Assembly: GCF_038957035.1 (NCBI RefSeq) | Contig: NZ_CP152412.1 | Location: 558,001 to 622,000, forward strand | Reading direction: 5' to 3' | DNA length: 64,000 nucleotides | Origin: Bradyrhizobium sp. B097 | GTDB taxonomy: Bacteria > Pseudomonadota > Alphaproteobacteria > Rhizobiales > Xanthobacteraceae | In this document: piece after piece, positions 11,094 through 26,765 of the stretch | Position numbering within the stretch: position 1 is the first letter of the stretch | Layout of the letters: each line of letters begins with the position of its first letter | Position numbers and translations under genes: made by a program | Notes under the pieces: generated by a model | Databases searched by the model: none | Seen by the model: the letters and a program-made list of their open reading frames with translations, nothing else | Told to the model about the DNA's origin: nothing

Positions 11094-11636
11094 TCATGCG
11101 GCGCGGGGGCCGGGCCTGATCCAGCGCATCAGGTCGTAGACGCCCTTGTCTTCCTCGGTGACGAAACCGAGCCGGCGGTAGAGCCGCATCGCCGGATTGA
11201 ACTTCTCGACATGGATCGAGACGTCCTTGCCGGCATCAGCCGCCTCGTCCATTGCATCGCGCAGCAGCGCTTCGCCATATCCCTTGCCGCGATGTTCGGG
11301 AAGGAAGGCGATGTCGATGATGCGGTGCTGGCTCGGCCAGCGCTCGATATAGAACCGGCCGATGTTCTCGCCGCCATGCGTGATTACCAGCCAGTCGGTG
11401 TTCGGATAGTATTGCTGATAGTGCGCGTGCTGGGCGCGGAATTGCTGATCGAGGAAGGCGGCCTTGTCCGCCTCGCTCCACGGCACCGGCGCCAGCTCCT
11501 CGGCGCGCGTCGAGGCGTAGAGCCGGCCGAGGAACGGCAGATCAGCCTCCGCCTGCCGGCGAAAGCGGCAACCGGATTCGGCGGCGCGCGCCCAGCCGAA
11601 CGCAGGACTGATGCTGTCCGACGTATCGAGAACCAA
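11094..11636 (-). CDS. GNAT-family N-acetyltransferase
   Basis: A 180-residue acetyltransferase. The acetyl-CoA pyrophosphate loop is visible as PEHRGKGYGEALL near residues 113-125, followed by the C-terminal NPAMRLYRRLGFV motif common to GNATs. The acceptor is unknown. The start is a TTG with GAGG five bases in front, and that ribosome site overlaps the stop of the preceding tail-collar gene. Translation is therefore likely coupled to the tail-collar trio, so the enzyme may modify one of those proteins or simply share their expression. Confidence 0.86.
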   Translation of the reverse strand: MVLDTSDSISPAFGWARAAESGCRFRRQAEADLPFLGRLYASTRAEELAPVPWSEADKAAFLDQQFRAQHAHYQQYYPNTDWLVITHGGENIGRFYIERWPSQHRIIDIAFLPEHRGKGYGEALLRDAMDEAADAGKDVSIHVEKFNPAMRLYRRLGFVTEEDKGVYDLMRWIRPGPRAA

Positions 11637-11643
11637 AGCGACC

Positions 11644-12177
11644 TCAGCTTCGTGGCGGGAATACGCCCTGCAGCGCGATGCAGAAATTCAAGGTGAGATA
11701 CGGCTGCATGTTGTTGTGCGGCTGGTTGCCGCCGGTCATGCCGATCATGGCGGCGTTCATCTGGATCAACGTCGGCGCCGGGTTTCCGGGCACATAGGCG
11801 AAGGCACTCGCCGATTTGCCCAGGATGCGGGTCGGGCTGGGGACTTGGACGTCGGCCGTGTCCTGCGTATCGACATTCACGAGGTGGTTGTGAAGCGGTA
11901 TCTGGGTTTGCAGCAGGGTGACCGAGGTCGAGCCGCCAGTCTCTCCGAGGTCATACAGCGACAGCCCGGGGCCCTGTCCAGGCGCCAGCGGCGCGTTGCC
12001 CTGCATGTTGGGCAGCTGGAAGTTCGACGTGCCGTTGCCGCCATAGGTGGTGCCAAGCAGCGAGAACAGCGCCGTATTCTGCGAGATCGGCAAGAGCTGA
12101 CCGCTGCAGAAGGCCCAGCCCTTGGGCGCGAAGTTGAAGGGAAAGATGCGGATCTCGGCGACAAAGGGATCGGACAT
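11644..12177 (-). CDS. Tail-collar (microcystin-dependent / MdpB-like) protein, third of three
   Basis: A 177-residue protein with the phage tail-collar domain (PF07484 type) at its N-terminus: FPFNFAPKGWAFCSGQ, LLPISQNTALFSLLGTTYGG, then FQLPNMQGNAPL. The C-terminal half is glycine- and asparagine-rich and ends with QPHNNMQPYLTLNFCIALQG, a pattern shared by all three copies. AGGAG lies nine bases before the ATG. There is no signal peptide. Family members occur in phage tail fibres and as stand-alone bacterial proteins; no other phage genes are present here, so a stand-alone role is more likely. Confidence 0.9.
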   Translation of the reverse strand: MSDPFVAEIRIFPFNFAPKGWAFCSGQLLPISQNTALFSLLGTTYGGNGTSNFQLPNMQGNAPLAPGQGPGLSLYDLGETGGSTSVTLLQTQIPLHNHLVNVDTQDTADVQVPSPTRILGKSASAFAYVPGNPAPTLIQMNAAMIGMTGGNQPHNNMQPYLTLNFCIALQGVFPPRS

Positions 12178-12189
12178 GCTGTCGCGCTC

Positions 12190-12714
12190 CTAGCTCTGGC
12201 TCGGGAAAATGCCGAACAGCGAAATGATGAAGCCGACGCAAAGCAGCGGCTGCAAATTGTTGTGCGGCTGGCTTCCGCCCGCGTTCGTCAGCATTCCGCT
12301 TGCCATCGGGCCATCGGGCGGCTGACCGTCGACGTACATGGCGATCGTGCCGGACACCTGATCAAGGATATTTCCTTGCGGGTTCGCCCCGGTGCCGGTC
12401 TGCGTCGAGGCGATGAAGGCGTGCGAATGCTGCGGGATCGTCTGTACCGTGAGCGTTACGTTTTCGACGCCGCCATTCTGGCCGATGACATAGCTCGTCC
12501 CGCTACTGGCGGTGCCCATGTGGAGCGGCAGGCGGCCGCGCAGATCGGGGACTGCGAAGGTGGATTGGCCATCGCCGCCATAGGTGGTGCCGATCAGATT
12601 GAACAGCGTGTCGTACTGGGAAATCGCCAGTAGGCTGCCGTCACAGAAATTCCATCCCGCCGGGGCAAAGTTGCCGCCGAACATACGGATTTCGCCTACA
12701 AAAGGTTGTGACAT
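12190..12714 (-). CDS. Tail-collar (MdpB-like) protein, second of three
   Basis: A 174-residue paralogue of its neighbours, with EIRMFGGNFAPAGWNFCDGS, YDTLFNLIGTTYGGDGQSTFAVPDLRGRLP and the closing QPHNNLQPLLCVGFIISLFG. The middle part (residues about 75-140) is the most divergent of the three copies, including a PQHSHAF segment and a gly/asn-rich stretch. The gaps to the flanking copies are only 12 bp, so one transcript is likely. Tandem divergence with conserved ends suggests subunits that assemble through shared surfaces, but that is inference. Confidence 0.9.
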   Translation of the reverse strand: MSQPFVGEIRMFGGNFAPAGWNFCDGSLLAISQYDTLFNLIGTTYGGDGQSTFAVPDLRGRLPLHMGTASSGTSYVIGQNGGVENVTLTVQTIPQHSHAFIASTQTGTGANPQGNILDQVSGTIAMYVDGQPPDGPMASGMLTNAGGSQPHNNLQPLLCVGFIISLFGIFPSQS

Positions 12715-12726
12715 CGGCGCTTCTCA

Positions 12727-13227
12727 TCAGTTCGGCGAGGGGAAAACGCCCTGAAGGGCAATGCTGAAATTGATCGTCAGGAACGGCTGCATGTTCTGAT
12801 GGGCCTGGCTGCCGCCGACATTGCCCACGGTCGCGGGATTGAGCGTCGTGATGTTGGTCATCGACGTGCTGTAGCCGTTGTTGAAGGCACCGAGATAGCT
12901 GCCCGCATCGATCGGCGTGGTGCCGTTGCTGTTGGTGGCGTTTGCCAAATGATTGTGCTGCGCCATCTCGCTGATCGTGAGCGTATGGCCCTCCTCGCCG
13001 GCCCGTTGGCCAAGCGCGTAGCCCGCGCCCATACTGATCGGCACCCGGCCGCGGAGGTCGGGCAGGCCAAACGTGACGCGCCCGTCCCCGCCATAGGTCG
13101 TGCCCAGCAACGAGAACAGCGCCTGGTTCTGATTGATCGGCATCAACTGGCCGTTGCAGAGCGCCCAGCCCTTCGGAGCAAAGTTGAACGACATCATGCG
13201 GATTTCGGAAAGATATGGATCGGCCAT
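12727..13227 (-). CDS. Tail-collar (MdpB-like) protein, first of three
   Basis: A 166-residue protein opening MADPYLSEIRMMSFNFAPKGWALCNGQ, then the collar core ALFSLLGTTYGGDGRVTFGLPDLRGRVP and the shared C-terminal QAHQNMQPFLTINFSIALQG. I chose this ATG because family similarity begins at its first residue and GGAGG precedes it; 33 additional upstream codons read as non-coding. It is the promoter-proximal gene of the trio, downstream of the giant repeat-protein gene on the same strand with a 328-bp gap. Confidence 0.9.
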   Translation of the reverse strand: MADPYLSEIRMMSFNFAPKGWALCNGQLMPINQNQALFSLLGTTYGGDGRVTFGLPDLRGRVPISMGAGYALGQRAGEEGHTLTISEMAQHNHLANATNSNGTTPIDAGSYLGAFNNGYSTSMTNITTLNPATVGNVGGSQAHQNMQPFLTINFSIALQGVFPSPN

Positions 13228-13555: not shown

Positions 13556-16500
13556 TCAGACGATCAGGTCATGATGGACCAGGGTATGGGTGTGATCGTC
13601 GGTCGGCGTGCCGCCCATGGCGGCGAACGCCGCCTCGTGGCCGACCCACCATGAGGGCGCGGCATTGGAATGCCCGCTGAACAGATTGGACAAGGTCTGG
13701 CTGTGCGTGGCCAGGTCCGCATGGCTTGTGTTGGACTGCGACTGCGTCGGCGTGAACGACGAGAAATCGAAGCCGTTGGTCGCCTGCTGATTCGAGGATG
13801 TGTCGCTTTGCATGGGCATCGCCTTCTGCGATCCCACGTTGGCTTGAACGACATCTGCGGCAGTCGGGAGCCGGCGCTCGCCATCGGCGAGATCGATATA
13901 CATCAGGTCGTTGGCATCGGATGACGACGTCAAATCGGGGAGACCGAGCACGTGTCCCAACTCGTGGACCACCGCGGTCAGCAGATCGAGATGACCCGCT
14001 GCTGCCGTCGACGGATCCGTCTGCAGGCTGGTGCCGGAAGCATTGAGCGCGTGCGTGAACTCAAAATTGTCCGACGGTGTCGGATCGACGAACCAGCCGT
14101 GGCCGGCGGCATCGGTATCGATCGTGATGTGGCCGGCGCTTTCCAGGCCGACGATTTGGCCGGCGAGGTCGGCGACGCTGAAAGTGACGGCATGCAGCGC
14201 GGCGAGTTGATCCGAGTCGGCGCCTGCCTTCGCCCATTGGGTAATGGCCGCCGAGACGACCGAGTCGAGCTCGCCTTGTGTCAGGTGGGTTTCACCCGGG
14301 GTCGCGACAGCGGCCTGCACGCCGCCGTCTGCGGCGAGCATTGGCGATGCGCCGAACCCGTTGGTGCTGGCCGCCACGACGCTGATTGTCGGCGCCGTGG
14401 TGACCGTATTGTGCGCCAGCACATAGGCCGCAATCGCGGCGGTATCGGTCGCGCCGCCGCCATAGGACGAACCATCGCCCGCATGCAGACCGACGGTGGT
14501 GTTGTCGCGATCGCGCAGCCGGATATCGGTGCCGCCACCCGAGCCCGAACCCAGGAACTGATTTTCCTGGGCGCCGGTGCCGCCCAGCGTCAGCGAGACG
14601 CTCTGCGCGTCGCCCGCAACCGTACCGGCGTTGAGCTCAAAGCCATGATTGCCGAATGTGCCGGGGTTGGACGCCGTGTTGCCCATGACGATCGCGGTCA
14701 ATCGTGCGTTGCCGCCGTCGACCGCATCACCGGTCTGCAACAGGATGCCGTCGCCGTTGCCATATTGAAAGAGATGGTTGTTGGTGATCGTGACGCTGGA
14801 ATTGGCGCCGCCGTCGGTGATGAAGCCGATGTCGGAGCCCTGGACGGAACCGCTGTTGGCGATAGCCGCCACGCCGATGGTGTTGGAATCGATCGTGCCG
14901 GTAAACGAACCCGCGCCCGATCCGGTGCTGATGCCGAGCGCCGTGCCGAGCGCATCGCGCATGGTATTGTTCGCGATGTCGAAGGTCAGGTTGGCGTGAT
15001 CGCCGGCTCCGCCGGAGCTGATGGTGATGCCGCCGCCGCCCGAGACGATGTTCTGGTTGTTGTTCGAGAAGCTGTTGCCAAGTCCGGCGGTCGCGCCGCC
15101 CAGCACGAGATCCGAGCTGACACCGCCGTGCAGATCGAGCTGGAACAGGTCACCGCGCGCCGACGTGAACGTCGAGCTTTGAACCGTCGCGTTGAACGTT
15201 CCGTCGGTGGCCTGGAACACCAGTGCATCGCCCGACGAGTTGCTGGCCACCGAATTGGTGGCGAAGGTCGAGCCGGTGATGGTGATGCGGTTGAGCGTCT
15301 GACCACTGTTGTTGAAGACGTGGAACGCATCGAGCGCCGCGCCCGTGAAGGTCGAGTTCGTCACCGTCGCCGCGCCCGACAGGCCGGTGAAGTAGACGTC
15401 GCCTTCGCCGATGCCGCCGACATTGTCGCCGTTGGTGCCGGTCACCGTGGTATTGCCGAGGGCAAAGCCGGTGACGTTGGTGCCGACGATGCCGTAGTTC
15501 TGGAAGTCGTGCATCGTCAGATAGGAGAGCTCAACGTCCTTGGTGTTGTTGAGGTAGACGCCGCTGCCTTGCGTGGTGCTGGCGTCGGCGCCGGTCTTGC
15601 TGGCGATGGTGCCGCCGCTGCCCGCCGTCGAGCCGTCGCCGGTGACATGCAGGCCGCCATTGCCGGCGGCCGTGCCGGTGTTCGACAGAATGATGCCGTT
15701 GTTGGACCCGCCGCTCGAGGTGATGCTCTTGAGGATGAGGTTGGCTGAGCCGATCTGGGTGTTCTCGACATCGAGCGCGGTGCCGGTGCCTGATGTGATG
15801 GAGTTGGCGCTGCCGGTCAGCGTGATGGTGCCGCCATGGGTGAAGCTCAAGCCGGTGCCGCTGGCGGTCTTGACCGTGATGTCGGACATCGTGACGGTGC
15901 CGACATTGTTGCCGTCGTCGCTGATGCCGATGCCGGTCGAGGCCGAGGTGTCGATGCTGACGCCGGTGATGGTGTGACCCGTGGTGCCGAGCAGGTCGAT
16001 GCCGTTGTCGGCGCCGGTGACATGGATGACCGGATCGGTGCCGGAGCCGACATTCGCGGTCACCGTGGCGTTGGTCACCGGATTGGTGAACGTCAGGGTA
16101 TGGCTGCCGCCGATCAGGTTGACGCCGCTGGCGAGGTTGATGCCGTTGGCTTCGCTGTAGGTGCCGGTGCCGTGCTCGAGCACGACATAGTCGCCGGAGC
16201 CGGCCGGATTCGCCGCGTTGAAGGCCGCGATCGAGGTGTAGGGATCGTGCTGGGTACCGAGGTTGAGGCTGGTGCCTGTCGTCGAGTTGTCGATGTAGAA
16301 CACCTGCGGCACGACGCCGACATGGAAGGTCTGCGCGCCGGAGGTTTGCGCGCCGGGTGTACCGGTGTTGCCGTTGTCGTTGACGTTGAGCGTGACGGTA
16401 TCCGAGCCGGTGAAGCCGTCGTCGCTGTTGTAGGTCAGCGTCGCCAGCCCGGTATTGACCTGCGCGATGGTGCCGGTGAGCGTGACGGTGTGGCTGGCGT

Positions 16501-19500
16501 TGTTGGTGAAGCTCGCGAGCCCCGTGGTGTCGAAGCTCAGGGCGGCGTGGCCTGAGCTGATCGTCGCCGTGACGTTCCCGCTGCTGGCGTCGACGTCGGC
16601 GACCGACAGGCCGGAGATCGTAAGATTGGTGTGCGAGAAGGCAGTGCCGATCGAATTGTCCGCCGGCACCGTTGCGGTGGGCGCATCGTTGACGGCGGTC
16701 ACGCTTCCCGTCGTCGATGCCGTCCCGGTGTTGTTGCCGCCATTCGCGGTGCCGCCGTCATCGTGCACGGTCAGGGTATAGGAACGCGCGGTGGTATCGG
16801 GGTTTTCGCTGGTGTTGTTGAACTGGATCAGGTCGAGCGCCGCATTGTAGTGCGCCAGCGTGTCGGTGCCGGTGAAGCTGATCGTTTCGGTGCCGGCGGT
16901 GCTGCTGATGTCGAAGTGGATGCCGCCGATGTCGCCGCTCGCGCCGGCGTGCCCCGCGATCGAAAGCGCGTCCGACGGCTTCAGGTCGTTCAGCACGAAG
17001 GTCGCATCGGTCAGGTTGTTGCCTTCGGCGTCAGTGATTGTCAGGTTTGGCGTGATCGTGACCGGCGTCGAGTTGGCCGCCGGCGTGCCGTTCGGCGGTT
17101 CGGTGAATCCGGCGATGGCGCCGAAGCTGATCACCGGCGCGTCGTTGACCGGCGTGACATGGATGGTCGAGGTCGAGGTGTTGCTGTCCAGCGAGCCGTC
17201 ATTGACCGTAAAGCTGACGGTACGATCCGCCTCGGACGGATTGTCGCTGGTGTTGAAATAGGTGATGGAGTCGAGGGCGGCCTTGTAGTTCGCGACGCTG
17301 GAGGAGCCGGTCAAGGTCAAAACGCCGGTCAGAGCGTTGTACGATCCGACGATGCCGTTCTGGGGGTTGAAGCCGAGCACATCCTGGCCGGCGGCGAAGC
17401 CGCCGGTAATGGCAACCGTAGCGCTGGCCATGTTGGCGCTGTCGACGTCGGACACGTTGACCGACGTGTCGATCGCGGTCGCGGCCTGGTTCTCGATGTA
17501 GTTCAGCGTGCCGCCGGCTGACGTGACCGGCGGATCGTTGACCGGCGTGACGTTGATGGTGTCGGTGACTGCCGTGGAATTCGCGGCGCCGTCATTGGCT
17601 GTTATCGTGACGGTGCGCGCGAGGCCCGATGGGTTGTCGCTGGTGTTGAAATAGGTCACCGAGGCCAGCGCGGCCTGGTAGTTGGCGACCGTGTCGGTGC
17701 CGGTCAACGTCAGTTTGCCGGTCGCGGCATCAAACGTGCCGGTGATGTTGCCGATGGTGGTGAAGCCCAGGACATCCTGGCCGTTGGCATAGTTGCCGGT
17801 GATCTGCATCGTCGCGCCGGCCAGCGTGGTGTTGTCGACGTCGGTTACCGTGATCGCCGGATCGAACGCCGTCGCGACCTGATTCTCGGTGTAGTTCAGC
17901 GTGTGGCCGGCGGTGACGACGGCCGGGTCGTTGACCGGAGTGACGTTGATGGTGTCGGTGACCGGCGTGCTGTCGAGCGTGCCGTCATTGGCTGTGATCG
18001 TGACGGTGCGCGCCAGCCCGGACGGATTGTCGCTGGTGTTGAAATAGGTCACCGACGCGAGCGCGGCCTGATAGTTGGCGACACTGGAGGTGCCGGTCAG
18101 CGTCAGCGTACCCGTTGCGGCGTCGAACGATCCGCTGATGCCGTTCTGGGTGACAAAGCCGAGGACGTCCTCGCCGACGACGTAGTTGCCGGTGATCTGA
18201 ACCGTCGCGGACGCCAGATTGGCGTCGTCGCCGTCGGTCACGGTGATCGTCGAATCGATCACAGTCGCGGCCTGGTTTTCCGTGTAGCCAAGGGTGTGGC
18301 CGGCGGTGACGACCGGTGCCTGGTCGATGACGACGGCGATGGTAAAGGTCTGCTGGCTGTGCAGCGTGCCGTCGGAGGAATCGACCGTGATGTCGTAGGA
18401 CGGATCGGCGGCGTGGATCTTGGTGGGATCGGCGACCATGACCTTGCCGGTGGCCGCATTGATGGTGAAGGCGCCGCCGGAGGTGTCGCCGACCAGCGAA
18501 TAGGTCACGGCCGGGCCGTTGACGTCGGTCGAGGATGCCGTCACGCCGGCTCCCGAGCCGACCGGAGCGCCGACCGCGACGCGGTTGATGGCGCCGTCGC
18601 TGTCGACCGGGGTCGATGGCGCGACGTCGGTAACGGCGATGGTGAAGGTCTGCGAGCTCGCCAGCGTACCGTCGCTCGCCTGGGCGGTGACGGTGTAGGC
18701 GTGCCCGGCCGCGCTTTCGTAATCGATCTTGGTCGAGTCCGCGACGCTGATGACGCCCGTTGTCGCGTTGATGGTGAAGCCGCCGCCGGAGGTGTCGCCG
18801 ATCAGCGAATAGGTCACGGCCGGGCCGTTGACGTCGACCGACGATGCGGTGATGCCGACGGTCGAGCCGTTGGCCGCGCCTTCGGTGATCGAGTTGGGAT
18901 TGGCGTCGGCATCGACCGGGGTCGACGGCGGAGCGTCGGCGACAGCGATGGTGAAGGTCTGCGAGCTCGTGAGCGTGCCGTCGCTGGCTTGCGCGGTCAC
19001 CGCGTAGGAATGGGTCGGGCCGCTGCTCTCGTAGTCGATCTTGGTGGGATCGGCGACGGTGACGACACCCGTTGTCGCGTTGATGGTGAAGCCGCCGCCC
19101 GAGGTGTCGCCGACCAGCGAATAGGTGACGGCCGGGCCATTGACGTCGGTCGACGACGCGGTGACGCCAACCGTGCTGCCGGCGGCGGCGCCTTCGACGA
19201 CACTGTTGGCGGCGGCATTGCTATCGACCGGAATCGACGGCGCAGCGTCGCTGACTGCGATGGTGAAGGTCTGTGAACTCGCCAGCGTACCGTCGCTCGC
19301 CTGTGCGGTGATGGTGTAGCTGTGACCCGCGCCGCTGCTCTCATAGTCGATCTTGGTGGGATCGGCGACGGTGACGACGCCGGTCGCGGCGTTGATGGTG
19401 AAGCCGCCACCCGAGGTGTCGCCGACCAGCGAATAGGTCACGGCCGGGCCGTTGACGTCGATCGCCGACGCGGTGATGCCGACCGTGCTGCCGGCGGCGG

Positions 19501-21583
19501 CGCCTTCGACGACGCTGTTGGCGCCGACGTCGCTGTCGACCGGGGTCGATGGCGCAACGTCCGTGACGGCGATGGTGAAGCTCTGCGTGCTGGTGCCGCC
19601 CAGGCCGTCGCTAGCCTGCGCGGTGATGGTGTAGCTGTGAGCCGCGCCGCTGGTTTCGTAATCGATCTTGGTGCCGTCGGCGACGGTAACGACACCCGTC
19701 GTCGCATCGATGGTGAAGCCGCCGCCGGAGGTGTCGCCGACCAGCGAATAGGTGACCGGCGGGCCGTTGACGTCGATCGCCGACGCGGTGACGCCGACGG
19801 TCGAGCCGTTGGCCGCGCCTTCGGCGATCGCATTGGGGTTGGCGTCGGCGTCGACCGGGGCCGACGGCGGGGCGTTGGTGACGCCGATGGTGAAGGTCTG
19901 CGAACTCGCGAGCGTGCCGTCGCTGGCGGTCGCCGTCACGGTGTAGGCGTGGCCGGGCGCGCTTTCATAGTTGATCTTGGTCGGGTCGGCGACGGTGACG
20001 ATGCCGGTTGCCGGATCGATCGCGAAGCCGCCGCCGGAGGTATCGCCGGTCAGCGAATAGGTCACGGCCGGGCCGTTGATGTCGACCGCATGCGCGGTGA
20101 TGCCGACCGCGGTGCCGGCGGTTGCGCCTTCGACCACGGTGTTGGCTGCAGCGTTGCTGTCGACCGGGGTCGACGGCGCCACGTCGGTGACGTTGATGGT
20201 GAAACTCTGGGTGCTGGTCAGCGTGCCGTCACTGGCCTGCGCGGTGATGGTGTAGGCGTGGCCGGGGGCGGTTTCGAAATCGATCTTGGTCGGATCGGCG
20301 ACGGTGACGATGCCGGTCGCGGCGTCGATGGTGAAGCCGTGCGCATCGCCGACCAGCGAATAGGTCACGGTGCCGCCATTGATGTCGGTGGCGTGGGCGG
20401 TGATCCCGACCGCGGTACCGATGGCCGCGCCTTCGACCACCGAATTGGCCGTGACGTCGGTATCGGTGGGCGCCGACGGCGGTGCGTCGGTGACGCCGAT
20501 GGTGAAGGTCTGGGTCGACGAGGTCGCGCCGGCGGTCGCGTGCACGGTGATGGTGTAGGCGTGGCCGGGCGCGCTCTCGTAGTCGAGCTTGGTCGGATCG
20601 GCGACGGTGACGACGCCGGTATTGGGATCGATCTTGAAGCCGCCGCCGGAGGTGTCGCCGGTCAGCGAGTAGGTGCTTGCCGGGCCGTTCGGATCGACCG
20701 CGGACGCCGTGATGCCGACCAGCGTGTTGACGGCGGCGCCTTCGACGACGCTGTTGGCGGCGGGATTGGTGTCGACCGGCGTAGAGACCGGAACGTCGTT
20801 GACGTTGATCGTGAAGCTCTGCGAGCTGAAGCCGCCGTGGCCGTCGCTGGCCTGCACGGTGATGGTGTAGGCGTGGCCCGGCGCGGTCTCGAAGTCGAGT
20901 TTGGTGGAATCGGCGACGGTGACGACGCCGGTGTTGGGATCGATCTTGAAGCCGCCGCCGGACGTATCGCCGGTCAGCGAATAGGTGACGCCGGGGCCGT
21001 TGACATCGGCCGACGATGCGGTGATGCCGACCAGGGTATTGACGGCGGCGCCCTCGTTGACGGCGTTGGCGGCGGCGTTGCTGTCGACCGGTGTCGATGG
21101 CGGCGCATTGCTGACCGCAATCACGAAACTCTGCGACGACGCGAAGATGCCGTCGGTCGCTTGCACATTGACGACGTAGCTGCCGCCGGAGCTCTCGAAG
21201 TCGACCTTGGTGGGATCGGCGACCGAGATCACGCCGGTGTTCGGATCGACCTTGAAGCCGCCGTAGGAGGAATCTGATGTCAGCGAATAGGTGACCGGAA
21301 GGCCGAGCAGGCTGCTCGACTGCGCAGTGATGCCGACCGAGGTGTTGGCTGCCGCGCCTTCAACGACCGTGTTGGTGCTGGAATTGGCATCGGTCGGCGG
21401 CGCCAGGAAGCCCTGGATCGGCGGCCAGAGCGTGCCGGGAGGGCAGCCGAGGTAGAGATATTGCAGACCATACGTGTCGGCGAACGCCTGCGCGGCCGGA
21501 TCAAGAATGATATGTCCGGTCGGATCGAGGTGAAGTTCGGGGCGCGTTAAACCACCGATTGAATAAGCAGGTATGGTCGTCAT
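13556..21583 (-). CDS. Giant repeat protein (2675 aa): cadherin-like repeats, beta-helix region, C-terminal metzincin-like domain
   Basis: Probable exported surface or matrix protein. The ATG is chosen because AGGAG lies five bases before it; the GTG two codons upstream is too close to that site. Order: a short N-terminus without signal peptide; ten cadherin-like repeats of about 100 residues (about 62-1091) with core YSLTGDTSGGGF, TGVVTVADPTK and HAYTITAQASDG; three longer repeats (about 1091-1483) with YTENQAAT and ALASVTYFNTSDNPS; two related modules; a Gly/Asn/Thr-rich parallel beta-helix-like region (about 1755-2380); and a final domain with HELGHVLGLPD (H2540, E2541, H2544, D2550) plus a methionine at 2561 in NDLMYID, matching HExxHxxGxxD with a Met-turn. 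Lack of a Sec signal suggests type I secretion, but no HlyB/HlyD-type genes lie nearby. Confidence 0.93.
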   Translation of the reverse strand: MTTIPAYSIGGLTRPELHLDPTGHIILDPAAQAFADTYGLQYLYLGCPPGTLWPPIQGFLAPPTDANSSTNTVVEGAAANTSVGITAQSSSLLGLPVTYSLTSDSSYGGFKVDPNTGVISVADPTKVDFESSGGSYVVNVQATDGIFASSQSFVIAVSNAPPSTPVDSNAAANAVNEGAAVNTLVGITASSADVNGPGVTYSLTGDTSGGGFKIDPNTGVVTVADSTKLDFETAPGHAYTITVQASDGHGGFSSQSFTINVNDVPVSTPVDTNPAANSVVEGAAVNTLVGITASAVDPNGPASTYSLTGDTSGGGFKIDPNTGVVTVADPTKLDYESAPGHAYTITVHATAGATSSTQTFTIGVTDAPPSAPTDTDVTANSVVEGAAIGTAVGITAHATDINGGTVTYSLVGDAHGFTIDAATGIVTVADPTKIDFETAPGHAYTITAQASDGTLTSTQSFTINVTDVAPSTPVDSNAAANTVVEGATAGTAVGITAHAVDINGPAVTYSLTGDTSGGGFAIDPATGIVTVADPTKINYESAPGHAYTVTATASDGTLASSQTFTIGVTNAPPSAPVDADANPNAIAEGAANGSTVGVTASAIDVNGPPVTYSLVGDTSGGGFTIDATTGVVTVADGTKIDYETSGAAHSYTITAQASDGLGGTSTQSFTIAVTDVAPSTPVDSDVGANSVVEGAAAGSTVGITASAIDVNGPAVTYSLVGDTSGGGFTINAATGVVTVADPTKIDYESSGAGHSYTITAQASDGTLASSQTFTIAVSDAAPSIPVDSNAAANSVVEGAAAGSTVGVTASSTDVNGPAVTYSLVGDTSGGGFTINATTGVVTVADPTKIDYESSGPTHSYAVTAQASDGTLTSSQTFTIAVADAPPSTPVDADANPNSITEGAANGSTVGITASSVDVNGPAVTYSLIGDTSGGGFTINATTGVISVADSTKIDYESAAGHAYTVTAQASDGTLASSQTFTIAVTDVAPSTPVDSDGAINRVAVGAPVGSGAGVTASSTDVNGPAVTYSLVGDTSGGAFTINAATGKVMVADPTKIHAADPSYDITVDSSDGTLHSQQTFTIAVVIDQAPVVTAGHTLGYTENQAATVIDSTITVTDGDDANLASATVQITGNYVVGEDVLGFVTQNGISGSFDAATGTLTLTGTSSVANYQAALASVTYFNTSDNPSGLARTVTITANDGTLDSTPVTDTINVTPVNDPAVVTAGHTLNYTENQVATAFDPAITVTDVDNTTLAGATMQITGNYANGQDVLGFTTIGNITGTFDAATGKLTLTGTDTVANYQAALASVTYFNTSDNPSGLARTVTITANDGAANSTAVTDTINVTPVNDPPVTSAGGTLNYIENQAATAIDTSVNVSDVDSANMASATVAITGGFAAGQDVLGFNPQNGIVGSYNALTGVLTLTGSSSVANYKAALDSITYFNTSDNPSEADRTVSFTVNDGSLDSNTSTSTIHVTPVNDAPVISFGAIAGFTEPPNGTPAANSTPVTITPNLTITDAEGNNLTDATFVLNDLKPSDALSIAGHAGASGDIGGIHFDISSTAGTETISFTGTDTLAHYNAALDLIQFNNTSENPDTTARSYTLTVHDDGGTANGGNNTGTASTTGSVTAVNDAPTATVPADNSIGTAFSHTNLTISGLSVADVDASSGNVTATISSGHAALSFDTTGLASFTNNASHTVTLTGTIAQVNTGLATLTYNSDDGFTGSDTVTLNVNDNGNTGTPGAQTSGAQTFHVGVVPQVFYIDNSTTGTSLNLGTQHDPYTSIAAFNAANPAGSGDYVVLEHGTGTYSEANGINLASGVNLIGGSHTLTFTNPVTNATVTANVGSGTDPVIHVTGADNGIDLLGTTGHTITGVSIDTSASTGIGISDDGNNVGTVTMSDITVKTASGTGLSFTHGGTITLTGSANSITSGTGTALDVENTQIGSANLILKSITSSGGSNNGIILSNTGTAAGNGGLHVTGDGSTAGSGGTIASKTGADASTTQGSGVYLNNTKDVELSYLTMHDFQNYGIVGTNVTGFALGNTTVTGTNGDNVGGIGEGDVYFTGLSGAATVTNSTFTGAALDAFHVFNNSGQTLNRITITGSTFATNSVASNSSGDALVFQATDGTFNATVQSSTFTSARGDLFQLDLHGGVSSDLVLGGATAGLGNSFSNNNQNIVSGGGGITISSGGAGDHANLTFDIANNTMRDALGTALGISTGSGAGSFTGTIDSNTIGVAAIANSGSVQGSDIGFITDGGANSSVTITNNHLFQYGNGDGILLQTGDAVDGGNARLTAIVMGNTASNPGTFGNHGFELNAGTVAGDAQSVSLTLGGTGAQENQFLGSGSGGGTDIRLRDRDNTTVGLHAGDGSSYGGGATDTAAIAAYVLAHNTVTTAPTISVVAASTNGFGASPMLAADGGVQAAVATPGETHLTQGELDSVVSAAITQWAKAGADSDQLAALHAVTFSVADLAGQIVGLESAGHITIDTDAAGHGWFVDPTPSDNFEFTHALNASGTSLQTDPSTAAAGHLDLLTAVVHELGHVLGLPDLTSSSDANDLMYIDLADGERRLPTAADVVQANVGSQKAMPMQSDTSSNQQATNGFDFSSFTPTQSQSNTSHADLATHSQTLSNLFSGHSNAAPSWWVGHEAAFAAMGGTPTDDHTHTLVHHDLIV
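17135..18310 (-). repeat. Three ~390-bp coding repeats of the giant gene
   Basis: Second repeat type in the giant gene. Each unit encodes YTENQAAT-like, DVLGF, LTLTGTSSVANYQAAL and TYFNTSDNPS segments. The three copies are about 124-130 residues long, clearly homologous to each other and different from the cadherin-like array beside them. Confidence 0.8.
18310..21400 (-). repeat. Tandem array of ten ~300-bp coding repeats
   Basis: DNA encoding the ten cadherin-like units. Blocks such as GAGGTGTCGCCGACCAGCGA (reading the plus strand) recur about every 300-310 bp with very few changes, most strongly between about 18450 and 20060. The first and tenth units are the most diverged. High identity between neighbours makes unit gain or loss by recombination likely and makes assembly collapse possible. 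Confidence 0.85.
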
Positions 21584-22338
21584 GCGCACTCCTGCGACCG
21601 GCGTGGAAGCCGATCAATATTTACAATTGTTGGGGACGATGACGTGTGAAGCCGTTCACACGTTGAAGTTGATCGCCCGCGACCGGCGATCGCGCCAAGC
21701 CGCCTGCAATTCGAGAAAGCCGCGATGTTCGCGGAGCCGCGGCATCAGCAAGATCAAATGCGCTTGCCATTTACGTCGTCGCTTTCACACACTCGCGCCG
21801 CGACAAAACACTATGAATGTTCGAGAAAAATGCGGCCGGCCAAGAATATTCATGCTTTGGCAACCATGACCGTATTGGCGATACTACCGGGTGTCAATGT
21901 GTGTCCGGATGACAACCTCGCCGTTAACGACGATTTCGCCGTGCAGCGGGAGGTAGAGTATGGGAGCTTGGCTGGTCGTGACGAAAGGTTCCTGTGCCAA
22001 AAGTAGAATCGGGGGCGGTGTGACGAATCTGTGAAACGAACTCGCGTTGTGATTGATTCGCGACGATCCGTCTGTGACCTTGCGCCCTCGATAGGCCAGC
22101 CAAACTGCCCCTTTTCGTCGTCCCGGTTTCGCGCGCGTGTCGTAAGGCTTTCAGACTACGAAACTATTTGCTTGATCCGGCGGCCATCTTGAACAGACTG
22201 TGGTGCGGCTACATCTGTGACGTCCGCTGCCGCGACATTGCGGTGGTGAGTCCGTGTTGAATCACCGCAAGTTTCAATTGCGACTTTCGTAGCCCTGCTT
22301 TGGTCGGCGTGCTTCGTAGTCTTCGGGGGAGTAAGGAA
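21584..22338. other. Divergent intergenic region, giant gene / RND efflux operon
   Basis: A 755-bp gap between divergent genes, one of the least GC-rich parts of the window. It must contain the promoter of the giant gene (minus) and of the efflux genes (plus). Short open frames occur on both strands but none has family features or a good ribosome site. None of the listed palindromic repeats is present. No regulator gene lies here, although RND operons often have one. Confidence 0.5.
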
Positions 22339-23595
22339 TTGAGTTCGATTGACAGAACGGAGCGTCCGGCTCCGGTGACCGGCGTCGAGCGTCATTCGCT
22401 TCGCCGCCAGGGATTCGTCAGGGCGTGCTGGCGCGGCCTCGCGCCGATTGGGCTGTTGGCCACGCTGACGCTCGGCGGCTGCGACGACAAGAGCGCGCAA
22501 TCGCAGGCCGCGCCTCCGGCGCCGCCCGTGACCGTCGCGCAGCCGGTCAAGCGCACCGTCACCGACTGGGACGAATTCACCGGCCGCTTCGAGGCGATCG
22601 AGGAGGTTCAGGTCCGCGCCCGCGTCGGCGGCTTCGTCAACAGTGTCGAGTTCAAGGATGGTGCGATCGTCCACGCCGGCGATCTGCTTTACACCATCGA
22701 TCCGCGACCGTTCGAGGCGGTCGTGCTGCAGGCCGAAGGTCAGCTCGCGGACGCGCGTGCCAAGGGCGAGCTTGCCAAGCGCGATCTCGAGCGCGGGCTC
22801 AATCTGGTGCAGACCAGCGCGGTCTCGGAGCAGGTCGTCGACCAGCGCCGCCAGGCGTTGCAGGCGGCGCGCGCTGCCGAAACGCAGGCCGAGGGTACGC
22901 TGAAGGCCGCGCAGCTCAACGTCGAATTCAGCCATGTGCTGGCGCCGATCGCCGGCCGCGTCAGCCGGCATCTGGTGACGCCGGGCAATCTGGTGCAGGG
23001 CAGCGAGAGCGGAGCGACGCTGCTCACCTCGATCGTGTCGCTCGATCCGATCTACATCTATTTCGACGTCGACGAGGCGACCTATCAGCGCAACAGCAAG
23101 CTGTGGTTCGAAGGCCGGCGGCCGAGCTCGCGCGATACGGCGAACCCGGTGCAGGTGACCCTGACCGGCGAGACCAAGCCCTCGCATGAGGGCAAGATGG
23201 ACTTCCTCGACAACCGCCTCGACGTCTCCACCGCAACGCTGCGCAGCCGCGCGGTGATCCCGAACAAGGACCTCTCGATCCTGCCCGGCCAGTTCGGCCG
23301 CGTCCGCCTGATCGGCTCCTCGCCCTATGAGGCGCTGCTGATCCCGGATACCGCCATCGCCACCGACCAGTCGCGCAAGATCGTGTTCGTGGTCAAGGAC
23401 GACAACACGGTGGAAGCACGAACGGTCACGCTCGGACCGCTGGATGAGGGCCTGCGCGTGATCCGCGAAGGCCTCAAGCCGGAGGACCATGTGATCGTCG
23501 ACGGGCTGCAACGCGCCCGCGTCGGCGCCAAGGTGACGCCGAAAATGGCCCAGGCTCCGGCAGGAGACAAGCCGGCGGCAGGTGCCAAGCCATGA
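22339..23595 (+). CDS. RND efflux membrane-fusion (periplasmic adaptor) protein
   Basis: A 418-residue adaptor linking an inner-membrane RND pump to an outer-membrane channel. The start is a TTG seven bases after GGGGGAG; the open frame extends 13 codons further but without a ribosome site. A lipoprotein-type signal is visible (GLLATLTLGGC, cysteine at about residue 42). Biotinyl-lipoyl halves flank an alpha-hairpin: VRARVGGFVNSVEFKDGAIVHAGDLLYTIDPRPFEAVV, then the coiled region LADARAKGELAKRDLERGLNLV, then LNVEFSHVLAPIAGRVSRHLVTPGNLV. The C-terminal proline/alanine tail overlaps the pump gene start as ATGA. It resembles MexE/AcrA adaptors. Confidence 0.92.
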   Translation: MSSIDRTERPAPVTGVERHSLRRQGFVRACWRGLAPIGLLATLTLGGCDDKSAQSQAAPPAPPVTVAQPVKRTVTDWDEFTGRFEAIEEVQVRARVGGFVNSVEFKDGAIVHAGDLLYTIDPRPFEAVVLQAEGQLADARAKGELAKRDLERGLNLVQTSAVSEQVVDQRRQALQAARAAETQAEGTLKAAQLNVEFSHVLAPIAGRVSRHLVTPGNLVQGSESGATLLTSIVSLDPIYIYFDVDEATYQRNSKLWFEGRRPSSRDTANPVQVTLTGETKPSHEGKMDFLDNRLDVSTATLRSRAVIPNKDLSILPGQFGRVRLIGSSPYEALLIPDTAIATDQSRKIVFVVKDDNTVEARTVTLGPLDEGLRVIREGLKPEDHVIVDGLQRARVGAKVTPKMAQAPAGDKPAAGAKP

Positions 23596-26500
23596 ATCTC
23601 GGCAGGCTCTCCATCAACCAGCCCATCCTCGCGATGGTGCTGTCGATCGTGCTGCTGATCGTCGGCGCGATTGCCTATCCGACGCTGCCGGTCTCGGAAT
23701 ATCCGCAGGTCGTGCCGCCGACCGTCACGGTGACCACGCAGTACCCGGGCGCCTCGGCGCAGACCGTGTCCGACACCGTCGCCGCTCCGATCGAGCAGGA
23801 GATCAACGGCGTCGAGGACATGCTCTATCTCTACAGCCAGGCGACCTCGAACGGCCAGCTCACCATCACCGCGACCTTCAAGCTCGGCACCGACCTCGAC
23901 AAGGCCCAGGTGCTGGTGCAGAACCGCGTCGCGATCGCGCAGCCGCGGCTGCCTGAAGAAGTCCAGCGCAACGGCGTCGTCACCCGCAAGAACTCGCCCG
24001 ACATCCTGATGGTCGTGTTCATGCTGTCGCCCGACGACACGTTCGACCAGCTCTACATCTCCAACTACGCGCTGCTGCAGGTCCGTGACCAGCTGTTGCG
24101 GCTCGACGGCGTCGGCGACATCCAGATGTTCGGCGCGCGCGATTACTCGATGCGGCTGTGGCTCGATCCCGACCGCATCGCCAATCTCGGCCTGACCTCG
24201 GGCGAGGTGCTGGCGGCGATCCGGGCGCAGAACCTGCAGATCGCGGGCGGCCAGATCGCCGAGCCGCCGATCGCCGATCGCGCCTTCCAGCCGAATCTCG
24301 TGTTCACCGGCCGTCTCAAGGACATCAGGCAGTTCGAGGACATCGTGGTGAAGGCCGGCTCCGACGGCCGTACCGTGCGCCTGCGCGACGTCGCCCGTGT
24401 CGAGCTCGGTGCGCTGTCCTACGCGACCAACAGCTTCCTGCTGCGCAAATCGGCGGTCGCCCTGCTGGTGACGCAGCGGCCGGGATCGAACGCGCTCGCC
24501 ACTGCCAAGAGCATCTCCGACACGATGGAGCACATGAAGGCGAGTTTCCCGAAGGGGCTCGACTACAACATCGGCTACAACCCGACCGAGTTCATCGCCC
24601 AGTCGGTTCATGAGCTGATCAAGACGATCTACGAGGCGATGGCGCTCGTCGTCATCGTGGTGCTGGTGTTCCTGCAGGGCTGGCGGCCTGCGATCATCCC
24701 GATCATCGCGATCCCGGTGTCGCTGGTCGGCACCTTTGCGGTGATGGCCGCGCTCGGCTTCTCGATCAACAATCTGACCTTGTTCGGCCTGGTTCTCGCG
24801 GTCGGCATCGTGGTCGACGACGCCATCGTGGTGGTCGAGAATGTCGAACGCCATCTCGAGCACGGCATGAGCCGGCGCGAGGCCGCGCTCAAGACCATGG
24901 AGGAGGTCGGCGGCGCGCTGGTCTCGATCGCGCTAGTGCTGTGCGCGGTGTTCGTGCCGACCGCCTTCCTCGGCGGCATCTCCGGGCAGTTCTTCCAGCA
25001 ATTCGCGGTCACGATCGCGGTCGCGACCGCGATCTCCTGCTTCTGCTCGCTGACGCTGTCGCCGGCGCTGGCCTCGCAGATCCTGGTCCCGCACGAGGAG
25101 AAGCGCCCGCCGGCGCGCTGGAACATCATCGCGCGCGGCTGGGACAGCTTCACCGCGCTGTTCAACCGCGTGTTCGACCGGCTGGCGCATGGCTATGCGG
25201 CGGTTGCCGACTTCGTGATCCGGCACACGGTGGTGATGGTCGCGATCTACCTCGTGTTGATCGGCAGCGCCGGCTGGCTGCTCGCGACCACCTCGCAGGG
25301 CTTCATCCCGGCGCAGGATCGCGGCTACGTCATCATCTCGGCACAGCTGCCGGGCGCCGCGTCGCTGGCGCGGACCACGGCTGTCGTGCGCGAGATCGAG
25401 CGGATCGCGCTGGATACGCCCGGCATCGTTCGCGTCGCGGCGTTCGCCGGCTTCTCCGGCGCGACGCGCACGCAGGCGGGTAATGCCGCGGCGTTGTTCC
25501 CGGTGTTCGACGAGCCGGAGGCGCGCCTGAAGAAGGGACAGACGGCGACCGCGATCACGGCCGACCTGCGCAAGCGTCTGTCGGTGATCCAAGGCGCCTT
25601 CATCATCGTCATTCCGCCGCCGGCCGTGCCCGGTATCGGCACCGGCGGTGGTTTCACCATCCGCGTCCAGGATCGACAGGGACGCGGGCCCGAATTGCTG
25701 GCGTCCGCGACCGACGAACTGGTGTTGGCCGCGCGCAAGTCGCCGAGCCTCACATCGGTGTTCTCGCCGTATTCTGCGAACACCCCGCAGCTGTTCGTCG
25801 ATATCGATCGCGTCAAGGCGCAGAAGCTCGGCGTTCCCATCGCCAACATCACCGACACGATCGAGACCTATTTCGGCTCGACCTATGTCAACGACTTCAA
25901 CCTGTTCGGACGCACCTATCACGTCACGGCGCAGGCTGACCTGCCGTTCCGCAAGGAGACCACCGATCTTTCGCGGCTACGCACCCGCAACGGTGCCGGC
26001 GACATGGTGATGCTCGGCAGCGTCGTGGACTTCAAGGACATCTCGGGACCCGACCGTGTCGCACGCTACAATCTCTACTCGGCGTCCGAACTGCAGGGTG
26101 AGCCGGCGCCGGGCGTCAGCTCGACGACAGCGCTCAACACCATCAAGAAGCTCGCCGACGAAACCCTGCCGAGCGGCTTCTCGTTCGAATGGACCGACCT
26201 GTCCTACCAGCAGATCAACGGCGCCAATGCGGGCCTCTACGTGTTCCCGGTCTGCGTGCTGTTCGTCTATCTGGTGCTGGCCGCGCAATATGGCAGCTGG
26301 ACGCTGCCGTTCGCGGTGATCCTGATCGTGCCGATGTGCCTGTTCGCGGCCACCATCGGCGTGCGCATCATGGGCCAGGACGTCAACATCCTGACCCAGA
26401 TCGGCTTCGTGGTGCTGGTGGGGCTCGCCGCCAAGAACGCGATCCTGATCGTCGAGTTTGCGCGCGATATCGAGCTCGAGGGCCGGCCACGGCTGGAGGC

Positions 26501-26765
26501 GGTCATCGAGGCCTGCCGGCTCCGCCTGCGGCCGATCCTGATGACGTCGTTCGCCTTCATCCTCGGCGTGCTGCCGCTGGTGCTGTCGACCGGCTCGGGC
26601 TCGGAGATGCGGCAGGCGGTTGGTGTCGCCGTGTTCTTCGGCATGCTCGGCGTCACCTTGTTCGGCCTCGTCTTCACGCCGATCTTCTACATGGTGGTGC
26701 GCAACCTCGCGGAAGGAAAGAACGAGGGCAAGCCGAAGGAACCCGCAGCGAACATGGCGGGGTAG
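23592..26765 (+). CDS. RND multidrug efflux transporter (AcrB/MexF-like, HAE1 family)
   Basis: A 1057-residue inner-membrane proton-drug antiporter of full family length. The N-terminus, FINQP-like SINQPILAMVLSIVLLIVG, and the porter motif GVEDMLYLYSQATSNGQLTITATF are typical. Transmembrane helix 4 carries the proton-relay pair D409-D410 in GIVVDDAIVVVENVERH, and helix 10 has a conserved lysine in VGLAAKNAILIVEFARD. Substrates of such pumps include antibiotics and plant phenolics; the sequence does not tell which. No outer-membrane channel gene follows, so the pump must use one encoded elsewhere. Confidence 0.95.
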   Translation: MNLGRLSINQPILAMVLSIVLLIVGAIAYPTLPVSEYPQVVPPTVTVTTQYPGASAQTVSDTVAAPIEQEINGVEDMLYLYSQATSNGQLTITATFKLGTDLDKAQVLVQNRVAIAQPRLPEEVQRNGVVTRKNSPDILMVVFMLSPDDTFDQLYISNYALLQVRDQLLRLDGVGDIQMFGARDYSMRLWLDPDRIANLGLTSGEVLAAIRAQNLQIAGGQIAEPPIADRAFQPNLVFTGRLKDIRQFEDIVVKAGSDGRTVRLRDVARVELGALSYATNSFLLRKSAVALLVTQRPGSNALATAKSISDTMEHMKASFPKGLDYNIGYNPTEFIAQSVHELIKTIYEAMALVVIVVLVFLQGWRPAIIPIIAIPVSLVGTFAVMAALGFSINNLTLFGLVLAVGIVVDDAIVVVENVERHLEHGMSRREAALKTMEEVGGALVSIALVLCAVFVPTAFLGGISGQFFQQFAVTIAVATAISCFCSLTLSPALASQILVPHEEKRPPARWNIIARGWDSFTALFNRVFDRLAHGYAAVADFVIRHTVVMVAIYLVLIGSAGWLLATTSQGFIPAQDRGYVIISAQLPGAASLARTTAVVREIERIALDTPGIVRVAAFAGFSGATRTQAGNAAALFPVFDEPEARLKKGQTATAITADLRKRLSVIQGAFIIVIPPPAVPGIGTGGGFTIRVQDRQGRGPELLASATDELVLAARKSPSLTSVFSPYSANTPQLFVDIDRVKAQKLGVPIANITDTIETYFGSTYVNDFNLFGRTYHVTAQADLPFRKETTDLSRLRTRNGAGDMVMLGSVVDFKDISGPDRVARYNLYSASELQGEPAPGVSSTTALNTIKKLADETLPSGFSFEWTDLSYQQINGANAGLYVFPVCVLFVYLVLAAQYGSWTLPFAVILIVPMCLFAATIGVRIMGQDVNILTQIGFVVLVGLAAKNAILIVEFARDIELEGRPRLEAVIEACRLRLRPILMTSFAFILGVLPLVLSTGSGSEMRQAVGVAVFFGMLGVTLFGLVFTPIFYMVVRNLAEGKNEGKPKEPAANMAG

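What the first reader, a model, noticed from the sequence alone, without database searches (positions are those of the whole stretch)
13556..21583. Giant adhesin-like protein ending in a metzincin-like zinc site
The 2675-residue product stacks ten cadherin-like repeats, a second repeat array and a beta-helix-like region onto a C-terminal domain with HELGHVLGLPD and a methionine 11 residues after the last ligand. HExxHxxGxxD plus a Met-turn is the zinc site of metzincin peptidases of the snapalysin sort. I recall this C-terminal module at the ends of other very large bacterial surface proteins, but I know of no shown activity. A self-processing or matrix-cutting adhesin would be new.
Basis: partly seen in the sequence, partly recalled or inferred. 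Interest (0 to 1): 0.72.

Follow-up and report, generated by a model that had tools for sequence, protein, structure and literature searches.

The report
Giant bacterial protein with C-terminal metalloprotease
A soil bacterium, almost certainly a Bradyrhizobium, encodes a very long repeat-built protein, probably exported, whose far end looks like a zinc protein-cutting enzyme related to matrix metalloproteinases; the combination is widespread and little studied, but not wholly new.

The parts
13556..21583 (-). Giant repeat protein, 2675 aa plus stop
   Evidence: Open frame; Pfam cadherin x10, matrixin match below cut-off
21404..21583 (-). N-terminal leader, residues 1-60, no hydrophobic signal stretch by eye
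   Evidence: Similar leader in many relatives whose N-terminus is present; no signal-peptide program was run
18416..21367 (-). Cadherin-like repeat array
   Evidence: TRF period 312 bp, two overlapping rows; PF00028 in ten stretches
17235..18315 (-). Second repeat array, unit about 131 aa
   Evidence: TRF period 393 bp x 2.8
14504..16261 (-). Beta-helix-like region, residues about 1775-2360
   Evidence: Strand-rich model, block pLDDT 58-93 over model residues 121-400; weak Foldseek matches to beta-helix lyases, tailspikes and pertactin
13826..14353 (-). Metzincin (matrixin-like) domain, residues about 2411-2586
13934..13966 (-). Zinc motif HELGHVLGLPD, residues 2540-2550
13901..13903 (-). Met-turn methionine M2561
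   Evidence: Met in 212 of 216 ungapped rows and 118 of 124
13559..13825 (-). C-terminal tail, residues 2587-2675, weakly constrained
   Evidence: dN/dS of residues 2591-2675 0.38-0.67, against 0.09-0.29 for residues 2413-2590
12727..13227 (-). Collar gene 1 (frame opens at TTG 13326; first ATG at 13227)
   Evidence: PF07484 E=2.8e-29; conserved neighbour
12190..12714 (-). Collar gene 2
   Evidence: PF07484 E=1.8e-28
11644..12177 (-). Collar gene 3
   Evidence: PF07484 E=6.4e-27
11094..11636 (-). GNAT acetyltransferase gene
   Evidence: PF00583 E=1.1e-13; conserved neighbour

Best explanation
The protein is a giant extracellular repeat protein of what is almost certainly a Bradyrhizobium. It is probably exported unfolded, C-terminus first, by a type I secretion system and folds outside. 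The cadherin-like and second arrays form a stalk, followed by a beta-helix-like region, and the C-terminal domain is an Asp-type, matrixin-like metzincin. It binds one zinc through H2540, H2544 and D2550, uses E2541 as general base above the M2561 turn, and most likely cuts proteins that it meets at the far end of the stalk (biofilm matrix, neighbouring cells, root surface). Shown here: architecture, predicted fold, conservation, selection, conserved neighbours. Inferred: zinc binding (about 0.9), peptidase activity (about 0.75), type I export (about 0.6), an external rather than a self substrate (about 0.55).
Against: No activity, zinc or secretion was measured. Foldseek alone gave no match at E<=0.001 (best MMP-12, 3.4e-3). 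The window protein falls under Pfam's matrixin cut-off (16.7 bits, 21.3 as a fragment, against 24). It has no RTX match of its own at E<=1, and no type I exporter gene is among the 12 neighbours scanned. In a longer model from 14 sequences the metzincin part was poorly predicted (block pLDDT 29-69). Some copies have lost zinc residues: HEMGEQ or HQMGDQ in P0019, P0020, P0061 and P0186 and seven rows of the second set; P0061 has no other HExxH by the pattern, so in some proteins the domain is not a zinc peptidase.
Confidence: 0.6

Rival explanations
1. Self-processing: the domain cuts the giant protein in cis or a neighbouring copy, releasing the stalk or trimming the tail, as CLCA proteins cleave themselves.
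For: [quoted passage not shown] The domain is tethered to a possible substrate.
Against: I ran no dedicated search for a cleavage site, but the linker before the domain is very different in L008 and L009 (dN about 1) and the tail evolves fast. In several relatives the domain lies within about 50 residues of the C-terminus or far inside the protein.
Confidence: 0.15
2. The domain is a binding or structural module that inherited a zinc fold and no longer needs catalysis.
For: Degenerate copies exist: a fully supported clade of three (P0019 and P0020 second copies, and P0061), and seven rows of the second set, six of them with Arg for the first His.
Against: HExxH with its Glu is kept in most copies, and the third position is Asp or His in 220 of 222 and 117 of 124, which a mere scaffold would not require.
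Confidence: 0.15
3. The peptidase acts on the products of the downstream genes: it trims or assembles the Collar proteins, and the GNAT enzyme modifies one of the partners.
For: 29 of 30 fetched class A places carry Collar x3 plus GNAT directly downstream on the same strand.
Against: In G191 a giant protein without a match to the domain precedes a Collar trio (L068), and other Collar homologues occur in genomes without the domain, so Collars do not need it. Co-transcription is not shown: the 328-bp gap holds a promoter-like match.
Confidence: 0.1

Closest known systems
DvhA and DVU1545 adhesins of Desulfovibrio vulgaris (PMC13090378 and PMC5646257, passages seen)
   Same: Giant repeat proteins exported by a type I system, with a serralysin-like metalloprotease domain reported at the C termini from AF2 models
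   Different: They have an N-terminal retention domain and RTX repeats. Whether their domain holds HExxH was not checked here; 'serralysin-like' could mean the RTX roll, and the word zinc is absent from the main text
Karilysin and matrix metalloproteinases (M10A, PF00413)
   Same: Fold, HExxHxxG, Met-turn; best sequence matches in the PDB
   Different: Third ligand is Asp in the window protein; no Cys for an MMP-type Cys switch (switch recalled, not from a call); carried on a giant repeat protein
Snapalysin (M7)
   Different: A small free protease; 1 of 62 relatives matches its Pfam model
Serralysins, RTX proteases
   Same: Metzincin joined to type I export in some relatives
   Different: No RTX match in the window protein; in RTX proteases the proteolytic domain is N-terminal (PMC3034196, passages)
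Cadherin-like and beta-helix PrsDE substrates of Rhizobium leguminosarum (PMC2275737)
   Same: Cadherin-like or beta-helix repeats, no predicted signal peptide, PrsD-dependent secretion
   Different: No metzincin domain is mentioned for them in the passages and section I saw
Database proteins named 'matrixin family metalloprotease' (P0148 Hyphomicrobium, P0201 Planctomycetaceae)
   Same: Same domain, already recognised by annotators
   Different: Both are partial proteins; no study is attached

Membership tests
Metzincin superfamily | HExxHxxGxxH/D zinc motif | tested here: met
   Residues 2540-2550; conserved in relatives
Metzincin superfamily | Met-turn | tested here: met
   M2561; Met in 212 of 216 ungapped rows
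Metzincin superfamily | Metzincin fold | tested here: met
Metzincin superfamily | Zinc-dependent proteolysis | not testable with these tools
   Needs the purified domain
Matrixin M10A (PF00413) | Reaches Pfam's gathering score of 24 bits | tested here: not met
   16.7 bits whole, 21.3 as fragment; the His-type relative P0105 scores 30.4
Matrixin M10A (PF00413) | His as third zinc ligand | tested here: not met
   Asp in the window protein; His in 28 of 222 and 27 of 124 relatives' rows
Matrixin M10A (PF00413) | Cys-switch propeptide (feature recalled) | tested here: not met
   No Cys in residues 2301-2675 as printed
Snapalysin M7 (PF02031) | Match to the family model | tested here: not met
   Window fragment not matched at E<=0.01; 1 of 62 relatives
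Snapalysin M7 (PF02031) | HExxHxxGxxD with Met about ten residues on | tested here: met
   definition from PMC3890501 passages
RTX type I substrates | RTX nonapeptides | tested here: not met
   No PF00353 match in the window protein at E<=1; 5 of 62 relatives have one
RTX type I substrates | Export by a type I system | not testable with these tools
   Indirect support only
LapA-type adhesins | N-terminal retention module with LapG site | tested here: inconclusive
   NCBIfam gave only a weak tandem-95 match; the module was not searched for directly

The most novel reading that the evidence does not exclude
The giant protein, its three phage-Collar neighbours and the GNAT enzyme form one surface machine: a type-I-exported fibre with a metzincin at its tip, on which phage-tail-like Collar proteins assemble or cap, and whose peptidase processes the fibre, the Collars or a target that they bind.
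Probability: 0.12. Interest if true: 0.8.

Novelty: new variant of a known kind. Interest (0 to 1): 0.48.

Why it matters
It shows a divergent matrixin branch as a recurrent end-piece of giant bacterial proteins, most of whose source names seen here are 'cadherin', 'VCBS repeat' or 'hypothetical'. Because Asp and His interchange as third ligand within one family, the family is a natural experiment on what that ligand does. If active, these would be long stalks with a built-in protein cutter, relevant to biofilm matrix and root colonisation. The conserved neighbours give a concrete handle on function.

Tried and rejected
Chance motif: rejected by conservation and fold. Snapalysin membership: fold and motif agree, but sequence models favour matrixins, so I file it as matrixin-like of Asp type and not as M7. 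Self-processing: judged only from the divergence of linker and tail; no dedicated site search was run. Beta-helix as a polysaccharide lyase: the best Foldseek match is a PL6 alginate lyase at 5.2e-4 with TM 0.14-0.16, too weak for more than 'beta-helix-like'. Viral library: no match at E<=0.001. Other metallopeptidase families (M66, reprolysin, a myxosortase-dependent family) matched some relatives weakly and were not pursued. Phylum-wide spread: 8 of 398 sampled genomes, four of them weak, so the sample shows little beyond patchiness. Undibacterium plasmid relative: the giant gene is followed by a hypothetical, an integrase and flagellar genes, neither of the two neighbour sets.

In print: ten searches of the PMC library. 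In their listings, and in the passages of seven papers (PMC2275737 with section 9 whole, PMC3890501, PMC3650047, PMC13090378, PMC3034196, PMC12077191, PMC5646257), I saw the Desulfovibrio sentence and nothing on this Bradyrhizobium family or the Collar association. Listings were cut at 10 to 20 papers each, and subscription papers and preprints are not held.

Full report
WHAT IS THERE. The frame at 13556-21583 lies on the minus strand: ATG at 21583, stop at 13556-13558, 2675 residues. The genome is one contig of 9.25 Mb with one match to the C-terminal 314 residues. The eight loci and the named hits above 49% identity are Bradyrhizobium, so the genus is inferred from relatives. Pfam finds ten cadherin stretches and, at residues 2519-2564, a matrixin match of 16.7 bits, under its cut-off of 24. 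TRF shows arrays of 312 bp x 8.7 and 393 bp x 2.8. Residues 1775-2611 modelled from 14 sequences give a strand-rich region (block pLDDT 58-93 over model residues 121-400) whose weak Foldseek matches are right-handed beta-helices: alginate lyases, phage tailspikes, pertactin.

CONSERVATION. First set: 234 domain rows from 225 proteins, the window's own among them, many of the short ones being pieces of assemblies (one search listed 120 of 144 hits and scored only the 7990 candidates sharing most words; one search gave 105). His1 is kept in 222 of 224 ungapped rows, Glu in 222 of 224, His2 in 218 of 224; the third ligand is Asp in 192, His in 28, Glu in 1, Arg in 1 of 222; Met in 212 of 216. Second set: 118 further proteins, 127 rows (one search listed 120 of 131 hits): HExxH kept in 117 of 124 ungapped rows; third ligand Asp 90, His 27, other 7 of 124. 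His-type rows tend to have a shorter stretch to the Met: at most 7 residues in 24 of 28, but only 15 of 26 in the second set; Asp-type rows have 8 or more in 180 of 185 and 79 of 86. A tree of 138 rows, out of 200 with enough coverage, was built without the ligand-to-Met columns; near-copies were dropped at 85% identity for Asp rows but 97% for the others, so His rows are over-represented. On it the label of 108 Asp and 25 His rows needs 13 changes by parsimony (shuffled mean 23.3), of which starred branches force at least 3; 74 of 135 inner branches are weak. Repeated exchange between two residues that can both bind zinc, and almost nothing else, is what a true ligand should show.

LOST SITES. 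P0019, P0020, P0061 and P0186 carry HEMGEQ or HQMGDQ. In P0019 and P0020 this is a second tandem copy beside an intact one. The copies of P0019, P0020 and P0061 form a clade with SH-aLRT 100 (P0186 was too short for the tree). P0061 has no other match to the HExxH pattern. Seven rows of the second set are degenerate, six with Arg at the first position. A minority of domains thus cannot be zinc peptidases of this kind.

SELECTION. Against seven of the eight loci (L004 left out, its frame being split), dN/dS is 0.09-0.29 in residues 2413-2590 and 0.38-0.67 in the tail; in the beta-helix it is 0.19-0.27 for five loci and 0.69-0.89 for L008 and L009, whose linker before the domain is also very different. 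The domain is constrained; a conserved cis cleavage site in linker or tail is not suggested.

EXPORT. A similar N-terminal leader occurs in many relatives and shows no hydrophobic signal stretch by eye (no signal program was run). The genome holds one PrtD-type exporter over its cut-off. A protein in the same position before Collar genes, without a match to the domain, has RTX-like repeats by eye near its C-terminus (L068), and many of the distant relatives list PF00353. In R. leguminosarum, signal-less cadherin-like proteins and a beta-helix-repeat protein depend on PrsD for secretion; a protease-RTX protein does too, by unpublished data cited there (PMC2275737, passages and section 9). The window protein has no RTX match of its own, and none of the 12 neighbours scanned is a type I exporter gene. 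Type I export is an inference.

NEIGHBOURS. In the window, 328 bp below the giant gene come three PF07484 Collar genes with 12-bp gaps, then, after 7 bp, a GNAT gene; the Collars match phage tail families. The gap holds one promoter-like match on the minus strand and no terminator-like match on that strand, so co-transcription is open. A survey found the domain in 42 of 195 genomes of the genus, at 46 places. I fetched 40 of the 46 (not G000 itself, G041, G100:C100, G125, G091, G081). Thirty lie in open frames of 387-3254 aa (class A): 29 of 30 have Collar x3 and GNAT downstream on the same strand; the exception is L041. The other ten lie in frames of 9.1-14.1 kaa (class B) and have no Collar match; in all eight whose gene end was fetched, SapC, HlyD-like and M50-like genes follow, and none of the 30 class A stretches gave a match to these. 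Similar sets stand beside giant genes on a Pseudosulfitobacter plasmid and, in part, on Mesorhizobium and Rhizobium plasmids; a fourth record, Undibacterium, shows neither set. Collar homologues occur in 63 of 195 genomes at E<=1e-10, some without the domain. So the Collar-GNAT set goes with the class A giant, and the L068 case suggests that the peptidase is an optional end-piece.

READING. I take it as an Asp-type matrixin-like endopeptidase on a probably exported giant repeat protein, acting away from the cell. Activity is inferred from conservation. Self-processing is possible but has nothing in its favour here. [quoted passage not shown] passages only). Asp as third ligand in a metzincin is known from snapalysin (PMC3890501 passages, for the Met spacing; the Asp ligand of snapalysin itself is recalled). 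Some database records already call the domain matrixin. Hence 'new variant of a known kind'.

Noticed in passing
window 11094-13227 (-): Three phage-type Collar genes and a GNAT gene directly below the giant gene, as at 29 of 30 fetched class A places.
   Followed up: partly
L047, L048, L050-L055; L080-L082: Relatives of 9-14 kaa have SapC, HlyD-like and M50 or site-2-protease-like genes downstream instead of Collars, perhaps another export or processing system for super-giant proteins.
   Followed up: partly
L056, L057: In two super-giant frames the domain reads HEEGHLLGF with a long insertion before the Met-turn; the usual third-ligand position is neither Asp nor His.
   Followed up: no
L070, L071, L073, L074, L077, L078: Collar homologues of another subtype lie near a long opposite-strand frame whose end looks, by eye, like an autotransporter barrel.
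   Followed up: no
P0126 and P0226 (protein search hits): Domain proteins filed under a shark (Chiloscyllium punctatum) and a dinoflagellate (Cladocopium goreaui), the latter with a longest contig of 7.4 Mb; probably bacterial contamination.
   Followed up: no
window 22300-26765 (+): Divergent RND efflux adaptor and permease genes, above NCBIfam subfamily cut-offs; ordinary.
   Followed up: no
L067: G167 has a Collar trio without a clear giant gene in the about 10 kb upstream that was fetched.
   Followed up: no
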